From contig JARUPZ010000019.1 of the NCBI GenBank assembly GCA_031213475.1, forward strand, positions 6,597,906-6,661,905: DNA of 64,000 nt, read 5' to 3'. The stretch comes from Nereocystis luetkeana (taxonomy: Eukaryota; Sar; Phaeophyceae; Laminariales; Laminariaceae). Below the pieces are notes generated by a model. That model was not told where the DNA came from. It searched no databases and worked only from the letters and a program-made list of their open reading frames with translations. A program made the translations under genes and the position numbers. Below are positions 1 through 36,350 of this stretch, piece by piece; position 1 is the first letter of the stretch, and each line of letters starts with the position of its first letter.

Positions 1-91
1 ATGGAATACTTGATCGAAACTCGTATTTTGCACGGTGCATGTGATCCCGCGATCGCGCGTGCTGCTGGGTGCTTACGACTTTAAGTGATGA

Positions 92-200
92 TATTACGGG
101 GGACCATAGTGAATAGGACCGAATATTGTTAGTAAAAAAAATGAAATATATAGTTTTTTGTGTGTACTGTAGGTCCTATTTAATATGGACCACAGGGGTC
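92..200. mobile_element. M1 MITE copy 1 (partial right end)
   Basis: The left end begins with the M1 terminal sequence TATTACGGGGGACCATAGT and carries the central A/T-rich part. The right inverted end is degraded: it reads GGACCACAGGGG instead of the usual GGTCCCCCGTAATA. The family is described in full under the copy at 15554. Confidence 0.75.
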
Positions 201-1984: not shown

Positions 1985-2350
1985 CCTTTTGGATGTGTTG
2001 TTGTCTTCACATTAAATCGTCCTTTCTACCCAGCTTCATCAGTACACCCAGTGTCCGTCCTGATTCCCTATCCTAGAGAGATACTGAGTCAGTGGTCGCA
2101 GACTGACTGTGAGACAGAGGAAGACCAAAAATAAAACCAAATCGCAAATTCAAGTGTCAAGCAAGTGAAGTGTCAGCGTACCGGGTACGAGAACACAACA
2201 ACACAAGCAAGACCGGAAAAATAAGAGCAGGAGACAATAAAACCAAAAAACCAAAAATCTGAAATGAAAAAAAAAGAAAAAAAGAAGGAAAAACAGAATG
2301 CAAACGACGCAAGGACTTCAGAAAGGCTGCTAGACGGAAAGCATGAGTAC
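1985..2350 (+). repeat. R3 dispersed repeat, copy 1
   Basis: Shared blocks are TTCACATTAAATCGTCCTTTC, CCGTCCTGATT, CGTACCGGGTACGAG, ACAACAACACAAGC and GCAAACGACGCAAG. The same blocks in the same order occur near 24600-24990, and the first part recurs inverted near 21121-21310 and 25573-25745. The A-rich ORFs across it are not conserved between copies. Confidence 0.65.
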
Positions 2351-3034
2351 CCACTTTTTGGGGGGGGCAACTATTCATACTTCAGATTTAGTGTTGGGAG
2401 TGTACAAGAAGCGATTGAATCGCGGGTAAATGAGGGCAAAAAACAGTGACGAGAATTCCGCTATACAGGTAGAACTTTATCCGACAAGGCGGTGGTCGTG
2501 CCCCCCCCCCCCCTCCCCCGACACACCCACCTTCTCGCGGCAATACCTCTACAGTAGACCTTAAACAGATCATTACCCCTCGTCAATGACCCCTTTTGCA
2601 ATAACGTTTCGAAGCGAACCGAGGGTGAGCGAGCCAATTAATTGGAGAAAGTAGGAACCTCTGACCGCTCTTAATGTCTCTCTGCGCTCTTTTTCAAAGC
2701 TCGAACGTGAAGCCGCTCGGGTGTCCTATCTCGTCTGTTTCCTTCGCTGTCTGCTTCACCGCAGTCTCTTGCCACTCTCGCGGAGAACTCGCCGTTTGTT
2801 TCTGGTGGGTGATACGTAGAAGTCTCGTTCTGGAGAAGGATAGTTCAGAGTTAACTTGTTTGTGATGTCCTCGCGAGGATAGCGAGTCATCCACACCTCC
2901 GAACTTGGCACCCAGACGCCACAAGTTGGCTACCCCGCACCATGACGTCCCCTCACCCTTCCTTGCGTCCGCCGACCCTGCCGAGGGACTGCAAACTGCT
3001 GGAGAAGAGGGCGTAGACAACCCACATCGGTGGC

Positions 3035-3290
3035 GTTCTACGATAGAGGTTCACCCTAAATTTTCTGAGGCTCCTCCATACCTCACCCCAAACTTGACAT
3101 CAGCGAAAATCGAATTGCATCCCGATGAATAATCCCGTGGCCCAAGTGTACTCAAACGTCATTTTTCGACACAAGATTGGCATCGCGGCGATTTCGGGTC
3201 AAGGAGCCCCGTCATCCAGAAACCATTATAGCAGAGCTACCTCTATCGCAGAACGCGTCATCGGCGCTTCTATTATACCCCTGGTACATT
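3035..3290 (+). repeat. R4 dispersed repeat, copy 1
   Basis: About 255 bp, including GATAGAGGTTCACCCTAAATT, a TCCCGATGAATAATCCCGT block and GATTTCGGGTCAAGGAGCCC. It is matched in inverted orientation at about 9055-9315. A short related piece lies at 36830-36895. Confidence 0.7.
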
Positions 3291-3894
3291 GTTGTTGTCA
3301 ATGCCCTCCATGACATACATTCGAGGGTTGCTCTAAAGTTCGCTTGTCTCATATTTTGTGAAGTCCCAATTAGTTGGAGTTGGTGAGAGTGACGAGAGAG
3401 ACCAGTTGGCACCGGCATAGACGGCACCCCAGCAGGTGGGGTTTGGCTCAGACTGAGAGTCTGCGTGCTTGCTATCGGTACTATACTCGTGGTCGTACTT
3501 TGCGGGGATATGGGGTATTCGTCTTGGTTCATTAAGGAAGGGCATTCAACGCCCTACAACATTTCTGCTTCGTGTTCAGTTTCGAGGTCGAGGGTTTCAT
3601 GGGGGGGGGGGGCATATCTTAGTTAGGCGGATGAGATGGACGAAGTCGACATGACATTGTATCTAACATGAACCCAAATGAGTACCAGGTATTTCCTACG
3701 GCGGGGTTTCTTGATAGTTCCGCCACAACAGCATTTCCGATTTTTCTCTTCTGCGGGGTACGTTGATATTGCGCTTGTACGCACGACGGTTACAAATTAA
3801 TCGACAGACGAATAGACAGAAGATGTCTGTACCACACAGAGGATCGCAACATAAAAGCGAAATACTTTATTTTCATTTTGAAGTTGATACTTCG

Positions 3895-4370
3895 TGGTCG
3901 AGTGCTCTGCGCAGGGCATGCTCTTCTTATGTCCTCGTATGGCTCTGCGGTCGGAGAGCTGATGACGCTCTGCCATCGCTCGTCGCGCGCTTGCTCCTCC
4001 TTCTCGCATGCTCTTCTTATGTACTTGTGGTGTTGATTGTGACAGTAGTATGCGGTTAGAGACCTGACGCTTTGTCATTGCTCGTCGCGCGCTCGCATGC
4101 TCTTGTGTACCTGTGGTGTTGGTACAACAATATGGTATCTATACTCGCTCCTCCTGCTCTGACGCCCTGAAGGCATATATGCTCTTGTGCACTTGACGTT
4201 CTCTCATCGCTCGTCGCGCGCTCGCATGCTCTTGTGGTGTTGGTACAGCAGTATGGTATCTATACTCGCTCCTCGTGCTCTGCCGCCCTGAAGGCGTACT
4301 CTTGTGCACATCACTTGTGGTGTTTGTAGGTACAACAGTATGATGGTATCTATACTCGTTCAGTCCTTGT
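3895..4370. repeat. Degenerate tandem repeat, about 110-bp unit
   Basis: The blocks GCTCGTCGCGCGCTCGCATGC, TCTTGTGTACCTGTGGTG and TATGGTATCTATACTCGCTCC recur three to four times with small indels. It runs into a GGTATGGTAC-rich simple region to about 4620. No coding signal. Confidence 0.7.
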
Positions 4371-4384
4371 ATGATTGAGCCTCT

Positions 4385-4620
4385 CGGGTGGTGTTGGTGC
4401 AGTATGGGTATGGTATGACACGTGGTACGGTACGGTGTGGCATGGTGTGCGGTGTGGCACGGTATGTGATATCGTCTGATGGTATGGTATGATGGTACGG
4501 TTTGATATTCTAGATGGAAAAAATACGGTATGTGATACGGTACGTTGGTGGTATGGTATGATGGTACGGTGTGGTGGATGTACGTATTTTATGGCTAAAT
4601 ATTGCCTGGTGGTATGGTAT
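4385..4620 (+). repeat. GGTAT/GGTAC-rich simple sequence
   Basis: Irregular reiterations of TATGGTATGATGGTACGG and similar words, directly after the tandem repeat at 3895-4370. Confidence 0.6.
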
Positions 4621-4714
4621 GTTTCAGTATCTAAGGTCTGTAAGAGTCGAATACGTCGTATGAATATAATTTGTAACGACCTAATATATCTATCATTGGA
4701 ACGTACTAATATCA

Positions 4715-5061
4715 GGCCGGTCGCCCCGGTGGTTCAAGTGGTTAACCTCGAATTCTGCTTGTGTTTTGAGTCCTGGGTTCGAGCCCCAGGGGGGTCGGAC
4801 ATTAGACTTTATTTGCAAAAATAAAAATAAAAAGGATTAAATTGTTGAGAGCGCCTTGCAGCGTATAGGTAAGCACATTTCGATGCGAGTCGACGAGGGA
4901 AGAAAAGGCTGAAATCTTCTCGCGATAAAAATGAAGGCACGTACCGTAGCGGGAAGGGGGTAGAAGAGCCTGCTATGTGACCCCGGATCTGAGTTACGAG
5001 TTGGAAGGAGAGAGAGAAGACGATGTGCGAAGATAATAAATGGGATGAGCAGAAAAAAAGG
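4715..5061 (+). mobile_element. tRNA-derived SINE, copy A (full length)
   Basis: The head is tRNA-like: an A-box region (GTGGTTCAAGTGGTTAACC) and a canonical B box (GGTTCGAGCCC) set about as far apart as in tRNA. A conserved body of about 230 bp follows (GAGAGCGCCTTGCAGCG, GATGCGAGTCGACGAGGGAAG, ACCCCGGATCTGAGTTACGAG). The 3' end is GAAGATAATAAATGGGATG plus an A-rich tail. Copies at 17855 and 22480 have the same head, body and tail. It is a Pol III retroposon by structure, not a functional tRNA gene. Confidence 0.88.
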
Positions 5062-5507
5062 GATGCGGACAGACAGACAGACAAACATATTTGCAATTAT
5101 CAAAACAGAGACCCAGTTTTACAAACTGAGAATTTGGGGTCCTGATTTCCGGTACTACAGTATGTACACCCGGCGGAGGGAAACTAGTGTGATCGCTGTG
5201 GTCGCACTGCTTGCTCCGTTGTGCGGTGGTTGGTGTGAACGAAAAAACACAGGAGTCGAAATCGGAAATCGGCGTTCGTTGTTACAGGTGAACAATAAAT
5301 ACGTAGTCCTAAGCCTCTTTACGTAGGCCTGCCAAAAACAGCAGCACGCAACAGCGTCGTCATCCGCTCACGCGCCTCTTGTAGCCGAATAAACGCAACT
5401 AGCTGTGCACGCTCGTGTACCTCTGCCGTTGTATAGGCGCAGCTGTGCATGTCAAGCGGGAACAAACGGGTGGTTACTGCTGTATTTTCTCTTATTTTGC
5501 TGTATCC

Positions 5508-5658
5508 CAACGTATACTCGGGTATTTACCCGGGTAGACCCAGAATACTCGGGTATATACCCCCGTATCCCCAGCGTATACTCGGGTTTGTACCTGGCTA
5601 CCCCCAGAGTAAACTCGGGTATGTACCCGCGTATCCCCAGAGTAAAAACCCAAGGTAT
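5508..5658. repeat. Minisatellite, about 36-bp unit x 4
   Basis: The unit contains TATACTCGGGTAT, TACCCG and CCCCAGAGTA. Four imperfect copies give repetitive peptides in several frames on both strands, typical of a non-coding minisatellite. Units are not separated by unique spacers, so it is not CRISPR. Confidence 0.8.
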
Positions 5659-5983
5659 GTGTACTAAACATTAAACAAGCCCATGCAACCTTCTTCGTCA
5701 GCCGCAACAAAACTGTGATACTAATCACGGAGCAGGGCCAACGCTATGCGTGGCTCCGCTGTCTCCCAAGTAGGTACTTTACTGCCTGGTAGCTATTAAG
5801 GTCGGACGGTCGCACGAGAAGGTCACCACGGGGGTATAAGGAGCGTTTAGGTACAAAAAGCAGCAAGCGCAAACGATATTTTCACATTTCCCTCCACAAT
5901 GGTATGATACGAGTACCAGGTTGCAGGTACGTACGAGGTATATCAGGTACTGCGTATAATTTGACACCTGGTACATATTTCAC

Positions 5984-6080
5984 ATAGTAATCAGGACCAA
6001 ATGTGCTGAGTAAAAATACTGAAATGTATAGGTTTTTGAGTATATCATGGGTCCCGATTACTCTGGTCCCCCGTAATAGA
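5984..6080. mobile_element. M1-related MITE fragment
   Basis: It has TCAGGACCAAATGTGCTGAG, the internal ATGTATAGGTTTTTG block and a right end GGTCCCCCGTAATA. The left end is diverged from the M1 consensus. Confidence 0.55.
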
Positions 6081-6900
6081 GTACAAAAACGCGAAATGAA
6101 TAGTCCCAAGTCTTATTGGCCTCGTCGAAGGCAAAACCTAACCCCAAAACGGGTCAATTGACACAAAAAATGTGATATTAATTATCCAAGTCTTACCCTA
6201 GCCTCGTCGGAAGGCAAGAGCTCAACCTAAAAGGGGAGACACATCGCAAAACGGCGGCGGAAGTGCCGACTGGTAGGAGTTTGCCTCGCAGCCCTCGACA
6301 AGTGCATCGGGTAGCAAAGCGACACAAACAGCAAACAAAAAATAACAGAACCACCTCGCTGAGTCTCTTTCGCCTGTTCCCTCGCCTCTTTGTACTGACT
6401 GCCCCCGCCCCCAAACAGATTGCTTCGCCGCCCTTCCCTTTGCAACAGACACACCCACACCTCCGTGTGTCCACGCCGCCGCATTGTTTTTCTTTCCTGG
6501 TATTGCTCAAAAGAAAGAAGCATTTTGTTTTCTTTGCACCCGAAAAAAAAAAAAAACAAACAAACAAACAAACATCCTCAAACACCACCGTTCGGCACCT
6601 GTTCGCCCGAATACGCTGGCGAAAATAGCCATCTATCTGAGACACGTAAAACACCCTCCAACAAGGCAGAGGGTGTGGTGGGACTACACGCTAAACGAAT
6701 CAAATAAAAGAGAAAGGAATGGAAAGGGAGAAAAAGGAAACACCCCCAGAACAAAAACAAAAAACTCGGGCTTTTGGGGGTGGTGCGGGGGGGGTCTCTG
6801 GAAAGGAAAAAAAAAAAACAACACACAACAAAAGTCCTCGGGAATACGAGAAAACGGGGTGCCATTTCTCCTCGGCGCCCCTGTGACGCGAAATCGTGTT
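6081..6900. other. Non-coding, A/C-rich spacer
   Basis: Several overlapping ORFs occur on both strands, but they come from A-rich, CAAACAAA and poly-purine tracts. None carries a recognisable domain or consistent splice sites. Confidence 0.4.
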
Positions 6901-29812: not shown

Positions 29813-29817
29813 GTACT
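29813..29817 (+). repeat. Target site duplication GTACT (left)
   Basis: GTACT directly before the left LTR is repeated directly after the right LTR at 36292-36296. A 5-bp duplication is standard for Ty1/copia integrases. Confidence 0.9.
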
Positions 29818-30115
29818 TGTTGACTGTGCTAAAAGATACGACGGAGATGATCCATTTTGTAGTAGGGAGTTCCATATATCGATGAGGCGTTGTGTGTGAG
29901 GGGAACATCTACGTGGAATTAGTGGCTATATTGCGGGAGAAAGGGACGTTTCATGTCTGGCAGCTTGCTGGATAATGTCCTTCGATGTTTCGTCATGGGC
30001 TGTCACTCGACAGCTCGATAATAATACAAGAGAGAGTTTCTGTGTTACTGCCGTCTTGAGTCACCAACGACGTGTTCCTGTGCCAACTACGTATACCTTT
30101 AGAGATCAATCAACA
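29818..30115 (+). repeat. Copia 5' LTR (298 bp)
   Basis: It starts TGTTGACTGTGC and ends ATCAATCAACA, so it has the TG...CA rule with a TGTTGA/TCAACA inverted end. By eye it is identical to 35994-36291 over its whole length. Confidence 0.93.
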
Positions 30116-30123
30116 CACTAGTG

Positions 30124-30385
30124 TGTTGATTGATCTCTAAAGGTATAGACGCAACTGGCACGGGAACGCGTGGTTGCTCCAGACAATAACACGGAACTCA
30201 TCTTATATTATACATCCGAGCTGTCGAGCTGACTCGCCTCATATTGAGCTACATCTATCGAGTGGTATTGGTGGGGTACACGTTACCCCGACATCCCAAT
30301 ACCCTACCACCAGAATCCCTGTTCAGCATGGAACTCCTCAATCTACGATGGATCTTACGGATCGTGTTCTTGAGCACAGTCAACA
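30124..30385 (-). repeat. Inverted, diverged LTR inside the copia element
   Basis: It begins TGTTGATTGATCTCTAAAGG and ends GCACAGTCAACA, the reverse complement of both LTR ends. The first 24 bases match the inverse of the 5' LTR end exactly; the middle is diverged but alignable (CCGAGCTGTCGAG, ATGGAACTCC, GATGGATC). With the 5' LTR it forms a long hairpin centred on CACTAGTG at 30114-30121. Confidence 0.85.
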
Positions 30386-31380
30386 TCCCCCCTGCTCACT
30401 ATACACGACCATACTCCAATATCCCCCCAGGTCGGTAACACTGTACACGACCCTACCAATGTCCCCCCTGTTCCGGTGCATGACAAGGCACGAAATAGCA
30501 GGGTTGATAGATCGCAATATCAGAATCACCTCATACCAAACTCAGAAACTCAAAACTCCAATCTGCAACTCAAAAATCAAGTCCTCGAATCAACACTCAA
30601 ATCGTCATATAATTATTCAAACGATCAAATCCAAAGCCTCTCTGTTCCAAACATGTAAAACTCTCGAAATCCAATGCCAGGTAAAACGGCACTCTTCTCG
30701 GGATTCAGCCAGGTAAAACGGCGTTGTCCGCGGAATTGATCCAAGTATATTCGTCCACTTTCAAGAAAATGTAAAACGCAAATCGACTCGAACGTAATTG
30801 TAGAAATTCCAATCCTGTCGACAAATAATCAGCGTGTTAGTTACCAAAAACCGAAAACGAAAAGTATTCAATCCGAACCGTATGCACCCCCTGGCATTTC
30901 AGTGTTCAGTCCTACCAACCTCTCTCTCAGTATTCCGAACTTCTATCCAAACCTTCCCTCGTCAGAAAACATTTTTATGTGGACCGCACACGCCCCCAGG
31001 CGCTTCCTAGTCTCACTTCAGCCTTGTCAAAAACCTACCAGGTAAATCACAAGTATCATCAGAAAAATACCACAGGAGTGGTCATGCCAATAAAAAAATC
31101 AAGTCAAGAAACTTAATGCCAGAGATCGCGAGGAACCCCGTTCCTCCGGACAAGAGTCTCCCCTTATCCCCTACTCCCGCCATAGATACACAGATCGCGA
31201 CGGTAATGCGAGATAGCACATAGGTTTCCCCACTAGAAGAATATTTGACGTTGCGACCACTCGGAAAATACCAAAAACTCTCGTGGAATCCAAATCGACC
31301 GGAAACACAATTCAAAAACAAAAAACAATGAAATCATTCATTCAGATTCACAGGCAATCACATTTCATTAGAAACCACCC
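30386..31380 (-). repeat. Inverted copia 3' region (end of pol and 3' UTR)
   Basis: It opens with TCCCCCCTGCTCA, the inverse of the polypurine tract next to the 3' LTR. TGCATGACAAGGCACGA, GCCATAGATACACAGATCGCG and AATGCCAGAGATCGC are inverse matches to 35460-35990. The match may extend to about 31380, where the inverse resembles the GFLMN end of pol. Confidence 0.75.
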
Positions 31381-31976
31381 CGATACCCCAGACACTACTG
31401 CTGTTGCCTCCGCCGCGGCTGCCTCTCCGTCCGGTCTCGTGGCGTCGCCGCAGCTCGGGTCATCCAGCTTATCCTCCTGGGTGAATCAAACGTCGCCTCC
31501 GCAGTAATGACCCGACACACACAAGGGATGGGGCGTGCAATCGAGCGATTAGGTCTGCATTGGGTGTTTTGCTCTTCCCATGTGTTAACAGCTTTCCAAC
31601 TCCTCTTTACCACTAAAGTTTCAAATGCGACTGTAAATAAACAGATGCTTGTCAACGAGAATATCTGGTCCCACATAAAATCCATGTATTCCTCGACCAC
31701 TAAATACATACCAGGTATACCCGGATGTTTCTCTTTCCATTCTACTTCTGCTGCTGTACTCTTATTGAATATTACCCCGTTCGCATACATACGAGCATCT
31801 CGCCTTTTGGTACGTACGTATCAAGTAACATGGGTGGTCCTACACATCAACTCAAAAACTTAAAAACGAGATGTCCGCGTATAAAGATATAAATATGTGG
31901 AATGCCGCAAACTAACGGAGTCTCAACTCACGTGTTGCTGTACGTAGTTGGGCTCAAGGGTTCAACACATACATAG
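31381..31976. other. Unassigned copia internal sequence
   Basis: This is where gag and protease would be expected in a complete element. Open frames on both strands (for example 31790-31395, minus) show no CCHC knuckle and no DTG/DSG protease motif. Origin unknown. Confidence 0.4.
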
Positions 31977-33971
31977 ATGATCAGACAATACTGTAACCTG
32001 CATCTCATGCCCATATTTTCCCAACTAGGTAACAGTGATCTCCGGGGCCCTCCCCTCGGCAATCGCTACACTGGTGTCTGGAGGCACACTATCATAATCA
32101 TTCGTATTGTCTCCAGCGCGCACGCTCGAAAAGCACAAATTACGAAATTCGGCGAGATTCGAACCCCCGACCCACCCTTGGGAATTATACAGCTCAATGC
32201 CAATGGAGCTCACCTGTTGGGTGGGGGTTTGTCTTTCATGCGTAGAGATGCAGGATCATACATTCAGGCTACACGGACTGTCGAGACCCCCATAGCTGCC
32301 GCAGTGTTGGCCCCTGGTAAGATGAGGAGGATCGATATTAACGATCTTCATGTTTCCCTTGCCCACTCCCATGCCGATACGCTTCGTGAGACGGCCCGCC
32401 AAATGGGCATTAAGGTTTTTGGAGAGTTGGTTTCGTGTGCCGGATGCTCAGAGGCGAAGGGGAGGAGGATGGCGGTGCCGTGGACGACCGAGTGCCGCTC
32501 CACCAGGCCTCTGGAGCGTCTTTTCGTGGACCTGTCGGGCAAGCAGCCTACGTCTGCAGGCGGTGCCGAGTACTTGATGATGATCGTCGACGACTACTCG
32601 CGGCTGGGATGGCCGTATTTCTTGCGCCGGAAGTCCGACGTCCCGGAGGTCTTCGCTGCTTTCCTCGCCGACATCAACGCCAAAGGTCGCCCGTCCATCG
32701 TGGAGTGCCTTCGCTCCGACAACGGCACCGAGTTCCTTAAGGCGCAGTTCGTGGCGATGCTCAACCACTACGGCATTCGGCGCGAGCACACGCCTGTCGG
32801 CTCTCCTAAGCATGATGGCGTGGTCGAGCGCCGGATAGCTATGACGCTGGAGCTTGCGATGGCGTCACGCCTGGAGGCCCCCCGCCTGTTCGGGGACGCG
32901 AAGATGCCATCGACGCAACCCCTCTGGGCCGAGGCCTGCAAGTACGCGAGCGACGTCATCAACATGACGGCGAGGGTGAGAGACAAGCCGGACATGCACT
33001 CTCCGTACCGGCGTTTCTACGGGAGGTCACCTTTTGCGCGGCTGCTCCCGTTCTTGAAGCCGGGCTACCACCACGTGAGGAGAGCCCTGAAGACGGGACC
33101 CAAGGCGGAGCCCTGCTTTTACCTCAACAGCGGAAATCATCACTCGGCTGACTGCTGCAAGATCCTGCTGCTGTCTGGCCAGAAGTCGTACTCCCGCGAC
33201 GTTACTTGGGAGCACCCGAGGAAAACGTTCGTGGGATTACTGCCTTCGGAGGAGGAGTGCTCTCCGCCGCCGCCGCCGTCGCCGTCCCCGGGCACGCCGG
33301 AGCCTCTGGGAGGCCCCGGCGTAGGATCCGACCAACCGTCGCCTTCCCCACTGCTGCCGCCGCAACCGCCGTCATCACCGCCGCCGCCGCAACCGCCGCT
33401 ACCGCCGTCGCCGTCACCATCGCCGTCGCTGCCGCCGTCTTCGTCACCGCCGCCGCCACCGCCATCGTCACCGCCGCCGCCGTCGCCGCCGTCGCCGCCG
33501 CCGCCGTCATCGCCGCCGTTGCCGCCGCAGCAGTCGCCGCAGCCACAGCTTTCTCAGCGTGCTGCCCGGGAGTTGGGTAGTTACAACCCAGGCCCGGAGG
33601 ATGGCGATGTACAGAGAGGCCGGACTAGGGGGGAGACTGTGAGGCACCAGGAGCTGGGTGGCCTCACCCCGAGTCCGGAGGAAGGTGACGTGCAGAGGGG
33701 CAGGACCAGGGGGGAAACTGCGCGTCACCGGGAGGCTGTGGGACATGGGCTGCTGTCGCTGATGGCAGCGAGGGAGGGTATAGGTCATATACTTTTCCAC
33801 CAAGCCCCGCCGTACGAGAATCCCCCCCTTCCCGCACGACCGGTGAGCGAGCTTTCAACGCCGAACTCGTATGCTGAAGCGTGTACGGACGAGTATTCGG
33901 CCATCTGGAGGCAGGCGATGGAGAAGGAGTATCGTGGACTGGCGGACGCGGGGACGTTTGGAGCGACGTAG
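31977..33971 (+). pseudogene. Copia pol 5' part: GAG-pre-integrase and integrase, ends at in-frame TAG
   Basis: Recognisable homology starts near 32340 (residue about 122). LHVSLAHSHADTLRE and FGELVSCAGCSEAKG form the HHCC zinc finger. The integrase core follows: Asp in LFVDLSG, Asp in RSDNGTEF, and Glu in DGVVERR 35 residues later, a canonical DD35E. The C-terminal part (YGRSPFARLLPF) leads to a long Pro/Ser linker and two copies of a GDVQRGRTRGET repeat. The frame stops at TAG (33969-33971). The same frame continues into reverse transcriptase, so one nonsense codon separates the two halves. The ATG at 31977 is arbitrary. Confidence 0.85.
33255..33545 (+). repeat. CCG/TCG-rich proline linker in pol
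   Basis: Near-continuous CCGCCG/CCGTCG triplets encode a Pro/Ser run of about 95 residues between integrase and the GDVQRGRTRGET repeats. The tract is repetitive enough to vary in length by slippage. Confidence 0.85.
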
Positions 33972-35402
33972 CAGCCAAGCGGGCTGAACGTCATCTCGGC
34001 GAAGTGGGTCTTCGCCTGGAAGTCCAACGAGCATGGTGAAGTGGTCCGGGCGAAGGCGAGGCTGGTGGCGCGAGGTTTTAAGCAGCGTGAGGGTATTGAT
34101 TTCTTTGAGACTTTTGCCCCCACCCCCGCGGCGTCTTGTTTTCGTTTGTTGGGTGCTATTGCGTGCGAGTTGGGTTTGGATTTGTGTCATTTTGATGCTG
34201 AGCAAGCGTTCGTTCAGTCGAGTTTGGAAGAGGATGTCTTTATGCGACTGCCCCCCGGTTGCGGCGAAATGTCTGGTAAGGTAGTCAGGTTGAACCGCAG
34301 TCTCTACGGCTTGAAGCAAGCGTCGAGGTCGTGGCACAACCACCTACTTACTCACATGAAGAGTCTTGGATTTGAGCAGAGCCCAGCTGATGCTTGTGTC
34401 ATGCGATTGGTCGAGTCGGGCTCTGTCTCCATTGTAACAGTGGTTCATGTGGATGATATTTTTGCTGTAGGACTCAAGACCAGGTGCGATCAGTTCTGTG
34501 AAGATCTGAACCGTCTCGTCCCGATTAACAACCTGGGCGAGTTGCGGTGGTATGCTGGTTGTCGTTTTTTGAGGGATTGGGATGCTGGTACTTTGACGAT
34601 TTCGCAGCAGGCTTTCGCTGAAAATACCGCGGCGAGGTTTAACGTTAGTTCTGGGAAGAGTAACCCACTTTCGACTGGTGTGAAACTCGAGGAGTTCGAC
34701 GAAAGTGAACCCGTGAGTGACTGGCCTTTTCGCGAGTTGGTAGGATGCTTGATGTGGCTTGCGAACCAAACACGACCGGATATTGCGAACGCGGTGCGAG
34801 CGGTAGCAAGGTATTCGAATAAGCCGAGGGAGGTACATTGGAAGATAGCGATTGGTATTTTAGAGTACGTGCTTTCTACGAGTGATTTCGGCATTACGTT
34901 CCAGAAGGGAAAGGGGCTTGACCTGGTAGCGTTTGCAGATGCAGACTATGCTAGCAAGGCCACTGACAGGAGGTCAGTTTCCGGTGGGGCTATAATGTGT
35001 GCGGGGGCGTGTGTGTGCTGGTTTTCGAGGACGCAGAAATGCGTTACGCTCTCGACCACTGAGGCCGAGTATGTAGCACTGGCAGAAACCATTAAGGAGG
35101 CGATGTTCATGCGGTATGTCTGGAGTTTTATTTTTCCGGGTTTTGGGGAGACATGCATGACGGTTTTTGAGGATAACGAGGGAGCAAGGCACCTGGCACA
35201 AAACCCAGTGTGTACGTCGAATTCGAAACACATCGACGTGCGACACCACTTTTTGCGGGAGCTTATTTTTAAGGGGGAGTTTGGTATTATCCATGTAGAG
35301 TCGGAGGAACAGCATGCAGACTTCTTGACAAAGCCACTCAACAACGCGGCTTTTCGTTACCACAGAGGTTTTCTGATGAATATTGATGCGTCTTCGAGAT
35401 AG
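33972..35402 (+). pseudogene. Copia pol 3' part: reverse transcriptase and RNase H
   Basis: It follows the TAG in the same frame (QPSGLNVISAKWVFAWK, the normal copia entry to RT); the first ATG is at 34041. RT motifs are VRAKARLVARGFKQ, ETFAPTPAA, LNRSLYGLKQASRSW and the catalytic VVHVDDIF. RNase H motifs are FADADYASKATDRRS, TLSTTEAEYVAL and HIDVRHHFLREL. All key acidic residues are present and no frameshift is seen. It ends at TAG 35400-35402. Expression would need readthrough of the upstream TAG or translation restart. Confidence 0.88.
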
Positions 35403-35980
35403 GAGGTTTTTATGTTGGTTTTCATTTCGGGTATTGTGGTTTGAACGCCGGATTAATTATTTGGGGAGAGAGCATGTATGCTATCTCGCGTTACCGTCGC
35501 GATCTGTGTATCTATGGCGGTAGTAGGGGATGGAAGGAGGCTTTCATTCGAGGGGACGGAGTCCCTTGCGATCTCTGGCATTCTATACTTTTCCTAGTTT
35601 TTATTTTTTTGGTGTAACCACGTACAATAGTGTCCTATTTTTCATGGCTACGACGTAAAATGATTTTCGTCTGAAATTGTGTGAGAGGCTTTTGAGAGGT
35701 TTTTGCTTGTCGTAAGGATGAGTTTTTCCTTTTGATATTAAGATGTTTTGGGTTTGAAGGTTCGGATACCTGATGTGAGGTTTTGAAGGTTTGATTTGAG
35801 GAATTTGATTTTTTTGATTTGGAGATTTGATGAGTTTTCAGTTTTCAATTTCATTTTTGGTTTTCGATTTTGTGCTTCAAGGGTATGAGAGTTCATTATG
35901 ATTGCGATGTGTCCACCCTGCGTTGTCGTGCCTTGTCATGCACAGAGCAGGGGGGAGGGAATTTGTATGGTCGTATGTAT

Positions 35981-35993
35981 TGAGCAGGGGGGA
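35981..35993 (+). other. Copia polypurine tract
   Basis: GAGCAGGGGGGA lies directly before the 3' LTR, the usual primer site for plus-strand synthesis. Its inverse is also found at 30386-30398 next to the inverted internal LTR. Confidence 0.8.
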
Positions 35994-36291
35994 TGTTGAC
36001 TGTGCTAAAAGATACGACGGAGATGATCCATTTTGTAGTAGGGAGTTCCATATATCGATGAGGCGTTGTGTGTGAGGGGAACATCTACGTGGAATTAGTG
36101 GCTATATTGCGGGAGAAAGGGACGTTTCATGTCTGGCAGCTTGCTGGATAATGTCCTTCGATGTTTCGTCATGGGCTGTCACTCGACAGCTCGATAATAA
36201 TACAAGAGAGAGTTTCTGTGTTACTGCCGTCTTGAGTCACCAACGACGTGTTCCTGTGCCAACTACGTATACCTTTAGAGATCAATCAACA
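35994..36291 (+). repeat. Copia 3' LTR (298 bp)
   Basis: It appears identical to the 5' LTR (29818-30115). Followed by the GTACT target duplication. Confidence 0.93.
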
Positions 36292-36350
36292 GTACTCAAT
36301 GTCATGCATGACCGTAGTCGTACGACCATAGACCCTGGCATCCCAGAAGG
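36292..36350 (-). repeat. R1 repeat fragment, copy 7 (inverted)
   Basis: GTACTCAATGTCATGCATGACC, CGTAGTCGTACGACC and ATAGACCCTGGCATCCC are the start of R1 in inverse orientation. Before the copia insertion this lay directly against the R1 copy ending at 29812. Confidence 0.7.

What the first reader, a model, noticed from the sequence alone, without database searches (positions are those of the whole stretch)
29818..36291. Young copia element that carries an inverted 3' end of its own family in place of gag
The two outer LTRs look identical and are bracketed by GTACT, so the whole 6.5 kb was copied and inserted as one unit. Yet directly inside the 5' LTR sits an inverted, clearly older LTR followed by inverted 3' UTR sequence. 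No gag, protease or ordinary primer-binding site is seen. The chimera must predate the last transposition, perhaps by template switching between co-packaged RNAs.
Basis: partly seen in the sequence, partly recalled or inferred. Interest (0 to 1): 0.72.

Follow-up and report, generated by a model that had tools for sequence, protein, structure and literature searches.

The report
Jumping gene with inverted foreign end
A very recently inserted copia-type jumping gene has lost its coat-protein half and carries in its place a backwards piece of a related jumping gene plus unidentified DNA, probably because its copying enzyme changed strands while making the DNA copy.

Summary
The anatomy is real. 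Two identical 298-bp LTRs with a GTACT target duplication flank a copia element. Next to the 5' LTR lies an inverted, related LTR with its polypurine tract and 3' UTR, then about 1 kb of unidentified DNA joined to pol at 32192. The genome search was answered once. Sixteen other copies of this young family were fetched; 15 carry gag and protease motifs. The inverted piece is not an "older LTR of its own family" but a patchily conserved sister family ("B"). The junction hits outside the window are the same locus on four redundant contigs, so no independent chimeric copy was found and "predates the last transposition" is not shown. The break follows a palindromic leader octamer, CACTAGTG, present in 15 of 16 sisters. 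The target a nested B insertion would need, TAGTG, fits the family's GNWNC-like preference badly. A sister copy, L023, holds snap-back-like inversions. I favour a strand switch during reverse transcription, with nested insertion plus deletion as a live rival. The decisive search for B in the genome did not complete. In passing: UAG-CAG-CCA lies between integrase and RT in 17 of 17 copies.

The parts
29813..29817 (.). target-site duplication GTACT, left copy
   Evidence: right copy at 36292-36296
29818..30115 (+). 5' LTR of the host element (family A)
   Evidence: identical to the 3' LTR, 298/298; one base private against 16 other copies, shared by both LTRs
30116..30123 (+). A leader octamer CACTAGTG (palindromic), the last A sequence before the inverted piece
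   Evidence: the same octamer follows the 5' LTR in 15 of 16 sister copies, and L026 has CACTAGTA; the 10 nt CACTAGTGTG are shared with L013
30124..30385 (-). inverted LTR of a related family B
30386..31218 (-). inverted polypurine tract and 3' UTR of family B (weak similarity possible up to about 31300 in the alignment, not tested)
31219..32191 (.). unidentified DNA: no convincing homology to A pol (best E 0.08), no blastn or tblastx match in the rest of the window, no Pfam family at its cut-off; holds a tRNA-like B box on the minus strand at 32156-32165
32192..33968 (+). A pol: pre-integrase region, integrase (rve 32502-32807) and a proline-rich linker; the join to A sequence is at 32192, roughly 90 codons behind the protease motif of L013 (by eye)
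33969..33971 (+). in-frame UAG, context UAG CAG CCA, between integrase and reverse transcriptase
   Evidence: present in 16 of 16 sister copies and here
33972..35403 (+). A reverse transcriptase (RVT_2, 1.7e-43) and, by its sequence, the RNase H region
35404..35993 (+). A 3' UTR with two polypurine tracts (35945, 35982)
35994..36291 (+). 3' LTR of A
36292..36296 (.). target-site duplication GTACT, right copy

Best explanation
This is a dead-end or helper-dependent chimeric copy of a young Ty1/copia family (A), made by a strand-switching error during reverse transcription. SHOWN: the A element starts normally with its LTR and CACTAGTG, then runs into the reverse complement of a sister family's 3' end (LTR_B, PPT, 3' UTR_B), then unidentified DNA, and rejoins A behind the protease motif at 32192, so gag, protease and the leader beyond CACTAGTGTG are missing. 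INFERRED: a growing A cDNA strand ending in the self-complementary octamer CACTAGTG paired with the same octamer of a B cDNA in the same particle. It copied B in the opposite sense, picked up a further template, and returned to A. Completed LTR ends were then integrated normally, giving identical LTRs and a 5-bp TSD. Without A's leader and Gag, the product probably cannot be copied efficiently again, which fits its being found at one locus.
For: Identical outer LTRs with a 5-bp TSD, and one private LTR base present in both LTRs. The left break is directly at a palindromic octamer that is canonical A leader in 15 of 16 sisters, giving a perfect 28+28-nt palindrome with the inverted LTR_B. The 5-bp target that a nested B insertion would need (TAGTG, or CACTA on the other strand) scores -7.06 on a matrix of 16 family TSDs (15 sisters plus this copy, L015 left out), where 97.7% of all pentamers score as high or higher; the central base is A or T in 16 of 16 TSDs, but G or C here; the lowest leave-one-out score of a real TSD is -3.09. 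A sister copy, L023, with identical LTRs and TSD GGTGC, has forward/inverted/forward/inverted pieces of its own pol start plus a 426-bp perfect palindrome of other DNA, together an inverted repeat with arms of about 491 nt, as snap-back synthesis would leave. B's coding end is not found upstream of its 3' UTR (using A's pol as query), so at least one more break inside the insert is likely.
Against: LTR_B meets A flush at its TG/CA terminus, exactly what integrase-mediated nested insertion leaves. B's own leader is unknown, so the octamer pairing is an assumption. B's target preference is unknown too, and 3 of 16 real A TSDs score below -2 themselves. No microhomology with canonical A is seen left of 32192 (0 extra shared nt with L013), and the donor is unknown. 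The chimera differs from sister copies by 6-12 substitutions over about 4.1 kb, four of its five private bases lying outside the LTR, so some post-insertion time is possible. L023's palindrome could be a sequencing or assembly artefact.
Confidence: 0.55

Rival explanations
1. Nested insertion then deletion. A inserted intact at GTACT. A B element then inserted in reverse 8 bp behind A's 5' LTR (TSD TAGTG), and one or more deletions removed B's 5' part and A's gag-protease.
For: LTR_B abuts A sequence precisely at its terminus. Nested insertions and deletions are ordinary. Only one locus is known to carry the structure.
Against: TAGTG is a poor match to family A's target preference (B's own preference is unknown). 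No second LTR_B is found in the window, and neither of the two CAACA strings in 30401-32400 is followed by TAGTG. Two or three events would be needed in an element whose LTRs have not diverged. The 31219-32191 stretch is not recognisable as coding DNA of an A relative.
Confidence: 0.35
2. Assembly join of repeats from two places.
For: A is a many-copy, nearly identical family (782 first-look candidates), easily misassembled. The genome holds redundant short contigs.
Against: Four other contigs carry the left junction and the same left flank: L009, L011 and L012 at 100%, L010 at 99.93% over 9000 bases with one gap. L012 spans the whole element and both flanks. They may come from the same reads, so this is not full proof; no reads were available.
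Confidence: 0.05
3. A propagating chimeric subfamily that predates this insertion.
For: TSD and identical LTRs. Only 40 of 782 candidates were scored, so other copies could exist.
Against: All 5 junction hits have the same flanks and the same GTACT. The leader beyond CACTAGTGTG, where the primer site would be expected, is missing.
Confidence: 0.05

Closest known systems
Template-switch complex LTR elements (Angela, Opie and Squiq complexes; Sabot & Schulman 2007, PMC1950507, whole text read)
   Same: 5-bp TSD, highly similar outer LTRs and a third internal LTR, explained by abnormal template switching in reverse transcription; the Angela cases are called copia there
   Different: in their model the internal LTR lies between two complete cores of related elements in one orientation; here the internal LTR is inverted, belongs to another family, and the core is incomplete
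Ordinary nested LTR insertions
   Same: an LTR terminus flush inside another element
   Different: only one end of the inner element is present, and its target does not fit family A's preference
Retroviral and retrotransposon autointegration or snap-back (self-primed) cDNA products (recalled; one search listed one HIV review, not opened)
   Same: inverted segments inside one element arising before integration
   Different: the inverted part here is not from the same element
Gag-only or otherwise partial non-autonomous copia families, e.g. in Ectocarpus (PMC12477816, passages only)
   Same: partial elements that need helpers
   Different: those carry a gag-like ORF only, while this keeps integrase-RT and lacks gag; no copy beyond one locus was found

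Membership tests
Ty1/copia (Pseudoviridae) | integrase upstream of reverse transcriptase, copia-type RVT_2 | tested here: met
   rve E 4.9e-10 at 32502-32807; RVT_2 E 1.7e-43 after 33972
Ty1/copia (Pseudoviridae) | LTRs with TG..CA ends and a 5-bp target duplication | tested here: met
   5-bp TSDs in 15 of 16 sister copies, L015 being the exception
Ty1/copia (Pseudoviridae) | gag and aspartic protease | tested here: not met
   not found in the chimera; motifs present in 15 of 16 sister copies, so the family qualifies and this copy is defective
Ty1/copia (Pseudoviridae) | tRNA primer-binding site behind the 5' LTR | tested here: inconclusive
   no ordinary PBS seen by eye in the chimera; the PBS of the sister leader was not identified by any search
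Template-switch complex element | flanking TSD and highly similar outer LTRs from one integration | tested here: met
Template-switch complex element | extra internal LTR in the same orientation and two full cores | tested here: not met
   internal LTR inverted, one partial core
Nested LTR insertion | inner element with both LTRs and its own TSD on both sides | tested here: not met
   a single LTR_B and no CAACA followed by TAGTG in 30401-32400
Nested LTR insertion | target typical for the integrase | tested here: inconclusive
   atypical by family A's preference; B's preference unknown

The most novel reading that the evidence does not exclude
The palindromic leader octamer behind the 5' LTR is a standing hot spot at which this family's reverse transcriptase changes strand, so the family repeatedly captures other elements or host sequence in inverted orientation. 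Each such capture puts the foreign piece antisense under an active LTR, which could produce silencing RNA against the donor family.
Probability: 0.12. Interest if true: 0.65.

Novelty: new variant of a known kind. Interest (0 to 1): 0.4.

Why it matters
Inverted chimeras inside freshly integrated LTR elements would show reverse transcription changing strand as well as template, a route for reshuffling elements and capturing sequence that same-sense template switching cannot give. This family is young: 15 of 16 sister LTR pairs are identical. With two rearranged copies among the 17 loci read (this one and L023), it is a good place to measure how often that happens. If the structure is instead a nested insertion with a deletion, it is ordinary.

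Tried and rejected
Own-family older LTR: rejected as worded, because divergence is patchy (identical tips and PPT, a conserved UTR block, large indels elsewhere). An 'unprocessed cDNA ends joined tail to tail' idea, based on the palindromic CACT/AGTG between the LTRs (note), was dropped once sister copies showed that CACTAGTG is simply the family leader. I first noted the junction hits on other contigs as several copies and withdrew that when the flanks proved identical. A gene in 31398-31820 (minus): no Pfam hit at its cut-off, and stop-free runs of at least that length occur in 40 of 300 first-order Markov sequences. Rfam: 9 matches at E up to 1, all below their gathering scores; 8 reflect the LTR/LTR palindrome and 1 lies at 32165-32228. 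Other collections: RT protein in viral contigs, none confirmed; an exact 20-mer in viral contigs and genome contigs, 0 each. PDB by sequence: 12 matches for the integrase frame, 10 of them integrases and 2 in the low-complexity linker; 0 for 34041-35399. Ten other window ORFs gave no Pfam hit at its cut-off. Paper searches: 23, 24, 33, 36, 43, 46, 76, 88, 116, 128; searches returned nothing.

The key query, B and 31219-32191 against the genome, did not complete, so B's leader, copy number and target preference and the identity of 31219-32191 stay open. Thirteen of the 29 other A places listed were not read.
Full report
WHAT IS THERE. The element at 29818-36291 has identical 298-bp LTRs and a GTACT duplication. 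Reading inwards from the 5' LTR: CACTAGTG (30116-30123), an inverted LTR (30124-30385), an inverted polypurine tract (30386-30397), inverted 3'-UTR blocks up to 31218, about 970 bp of unidentified DNA, then pol from 32192. The pol holds integrase, a proline-rich linker, a UAG, RT and, by its sequence, RNase H, followed by a 3' UTR with two polypurine tracts. The inverted homology is far above chance: score 127 against a maximum of 36 in 200 shuffles.

SISTER COPIES. The one answered genome search (40 of 782 candidates scored, so a lower bound) returned 45 rows: 5 junction-bearing 5' LTRs including the window's, 29 other places that look like 5' LTRs, 6 rows that are 3' LTRs of elements in the list, and 5 inverted matches beside the junctions. 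I fetched the four other junction contigs and 16 of the 29 other places. The four contigs are the same locus: flanks match at 99.8-100%, with the same GTACT. The 16 others are the family proper: 15 of 16 have 0 differences between their LTRs and L017 has 1; 15 of 16 have a 5-bp TSD and L015 does not; 15 of 16 have zinc knuckle and protease motifs in one long frame and L023 does not. Behind the LTR, 14 of 16 read CACTAGTGTGAGCCGG, L019 has CACTAGTGTGGGCCGG and L026 has CACTAGTATGAGCCGG. So the chimera keeps 10 nt of the leader and then departs. Over 32192-36291 it differs from the sisters by 6-12 substitutions, L013 being nearest.

THE INVERTED PIECE IS A SISTER FAMILY. LTR_B aligned to LTR_A gives 193 matches, 57 mismatches and 63 gap columns (which took three bases too many on B's side). 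The last 24 nt and the PPT/U3 junction (GAGCAGGGGGGATGTTGACTGTGCT) are exact, and a UTR block is 83.7% identical over 104 columns, while the LTR middle barely aligns. I read that as functional constraint between families, not the even decay of an old copy. What lies upstream of B's 3' UTR is not recognisable as RNase H or other pol of an A relative: the best match of A pol to that stretch has E 0.08.

HOW IT AROSE. Two histories fit. (1) Strand switch during reverse transcription. The break sits at a palindromic octamer of the normal leader, and a nascent strand ending there is self-complementary. The present LTRs and TSD then come from normal completion and integration. (2) B inserted in reverse behind CACTAGTG (TSD TAGTG), followed by deletion. 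For (2) speaks the flush LTR_B end. Against it speak the target (score -7.06; 97.7% of pentamers do as well or better; the lowest leave-one-out score of a real TSD is -3.09, and 3 of 16 lie below -2; 15 sister TSDs plus this one in the matrix, L015 left out), the absence of any second B border, and the number of events in an undiverged element. The target argument assumes that B shares A's preference. For (1) speaks L023, a sister with identical LTRs and its own TSD: its pieces run forward 1-1651, inverted 2430-2356, forward 2332-2528, inverted 2581-2304, a 426-bp perfect palindrome of foreign DNA, then forward 2304-6535. This is what snap-back synthesis would leave, though a sequencing artefact is not excluded. 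I put (1) at 0.55 and (2) at 0.35. The deciding datum, B elsewhere in the genome, could not be fetched.

Anatomy confirmed. 'Must predate the last transposition' is not shown, because only one locus is known. 'Template switching between co-packaged RNAs' is close, but two sense RNAs cannot give an inversion; strand switching is the needed addition (inference).

COMPARED WITH WHAT IS KNOWN. Sabot & Schulman (PMC1950507, whole text) describe complex LTR elements with TSD, highly similar outer LTRs and an internal LTR, by template switching. Ours shares those marks but has an inverted, foreign internal LTR and an incomplete core. Ten paper searches listed no inverted case that I recognised from titles and abstract starts; four of the listed papers were opened (one whole, three in passages), so I do not claim that none is in print.

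A SIDE OBSERVATION. The UAG at 33969 is in 16 of 16 sisters and here, always followed by CAG CCA (15 of 16; L026, which differs just upstream). It ends a Gag-protease-integrase frame of 1248-1280 aa in 14 of 16 sisters; in L026 the frame length, 1278 aa, agrees, and L023 is rearranged. The RT-RNase H frame behind it is 476 aa in 12 of 16 sisters, shorter in L019, L024 and L026, and not assessed in L023. RVT_2 begins at profile position 10 directly behind the UAG. CAR-YYA behind a stop is the tobacco-mosaic-type readthrough consensus (PMC2194720, passage). Programmed readthrough between integrase and RT is therefore plausible in this family; it was not tested.

Noticed in passing
window 33969-33977; L013-L028: In-frame UAG CAG CCA at the integrase/RT boundary, conserved in 17 of 17 copies of a young family; it matches the CAR-YYA readthrough consensus. 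Perhaps programmed readthrough splitting Gag-PR-IN from RT-RH.
   Followed up: partly
L023:2625-3595 (C10): Sister copy with serial inverted/forward pieces of its pol start around a perfect 426-bp palindrome of other DNA; identical LTRs and a TSD. Either snap-back reverse transcription or an artefact.
   Followed up: partly
window 35479-35582 and 31115-31218 (minus): A UTR block 83.7% identical between families A and B, including a 42-nt stretch with one mismatch, while surrounding UTR and LTR middles have diverged: perhaps a packaging or dimer signal.
   Followed up: no
window 32156-32165 (minus), just left of the join at 32192: tRNA-like B box (GGTTCGAATC; motif recalled) in the unidentified stretch; a tRNA-derived SINE piece or a captured tRNA end.
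   Followed up: no
window 4776, 17912, 22539 (+): Three tRNA-like heads with near-identical sequence next to a 192-nt repeat family (4868, 17998, 22632): apparently a tRNA-derived SINE.
   Followed up: no
window 91-186, 5969, 12845, 15554, 17704, 18436, 29371, 55730: Repeat with ends like ATTACGGGGGACCATAGTNAATAGGACC, direct and inverted copies, MITE-like.
   Followed up: no
G000 contigs C1355, C1207, C833, C708: Short contigs repeating the window locus at 99.9-100% over the stretches fetched: the assembly holds redundant contigs, which inflates copy counts.
   Followed up: yes
TSDs of L013-L028: The family integrates at GNWNC-like targets: G first in 13 of 16, A/T in the centre in 16 of 16, C or T last in 14 of 16 (window copy included, L015 left out).
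   Followed up: partly
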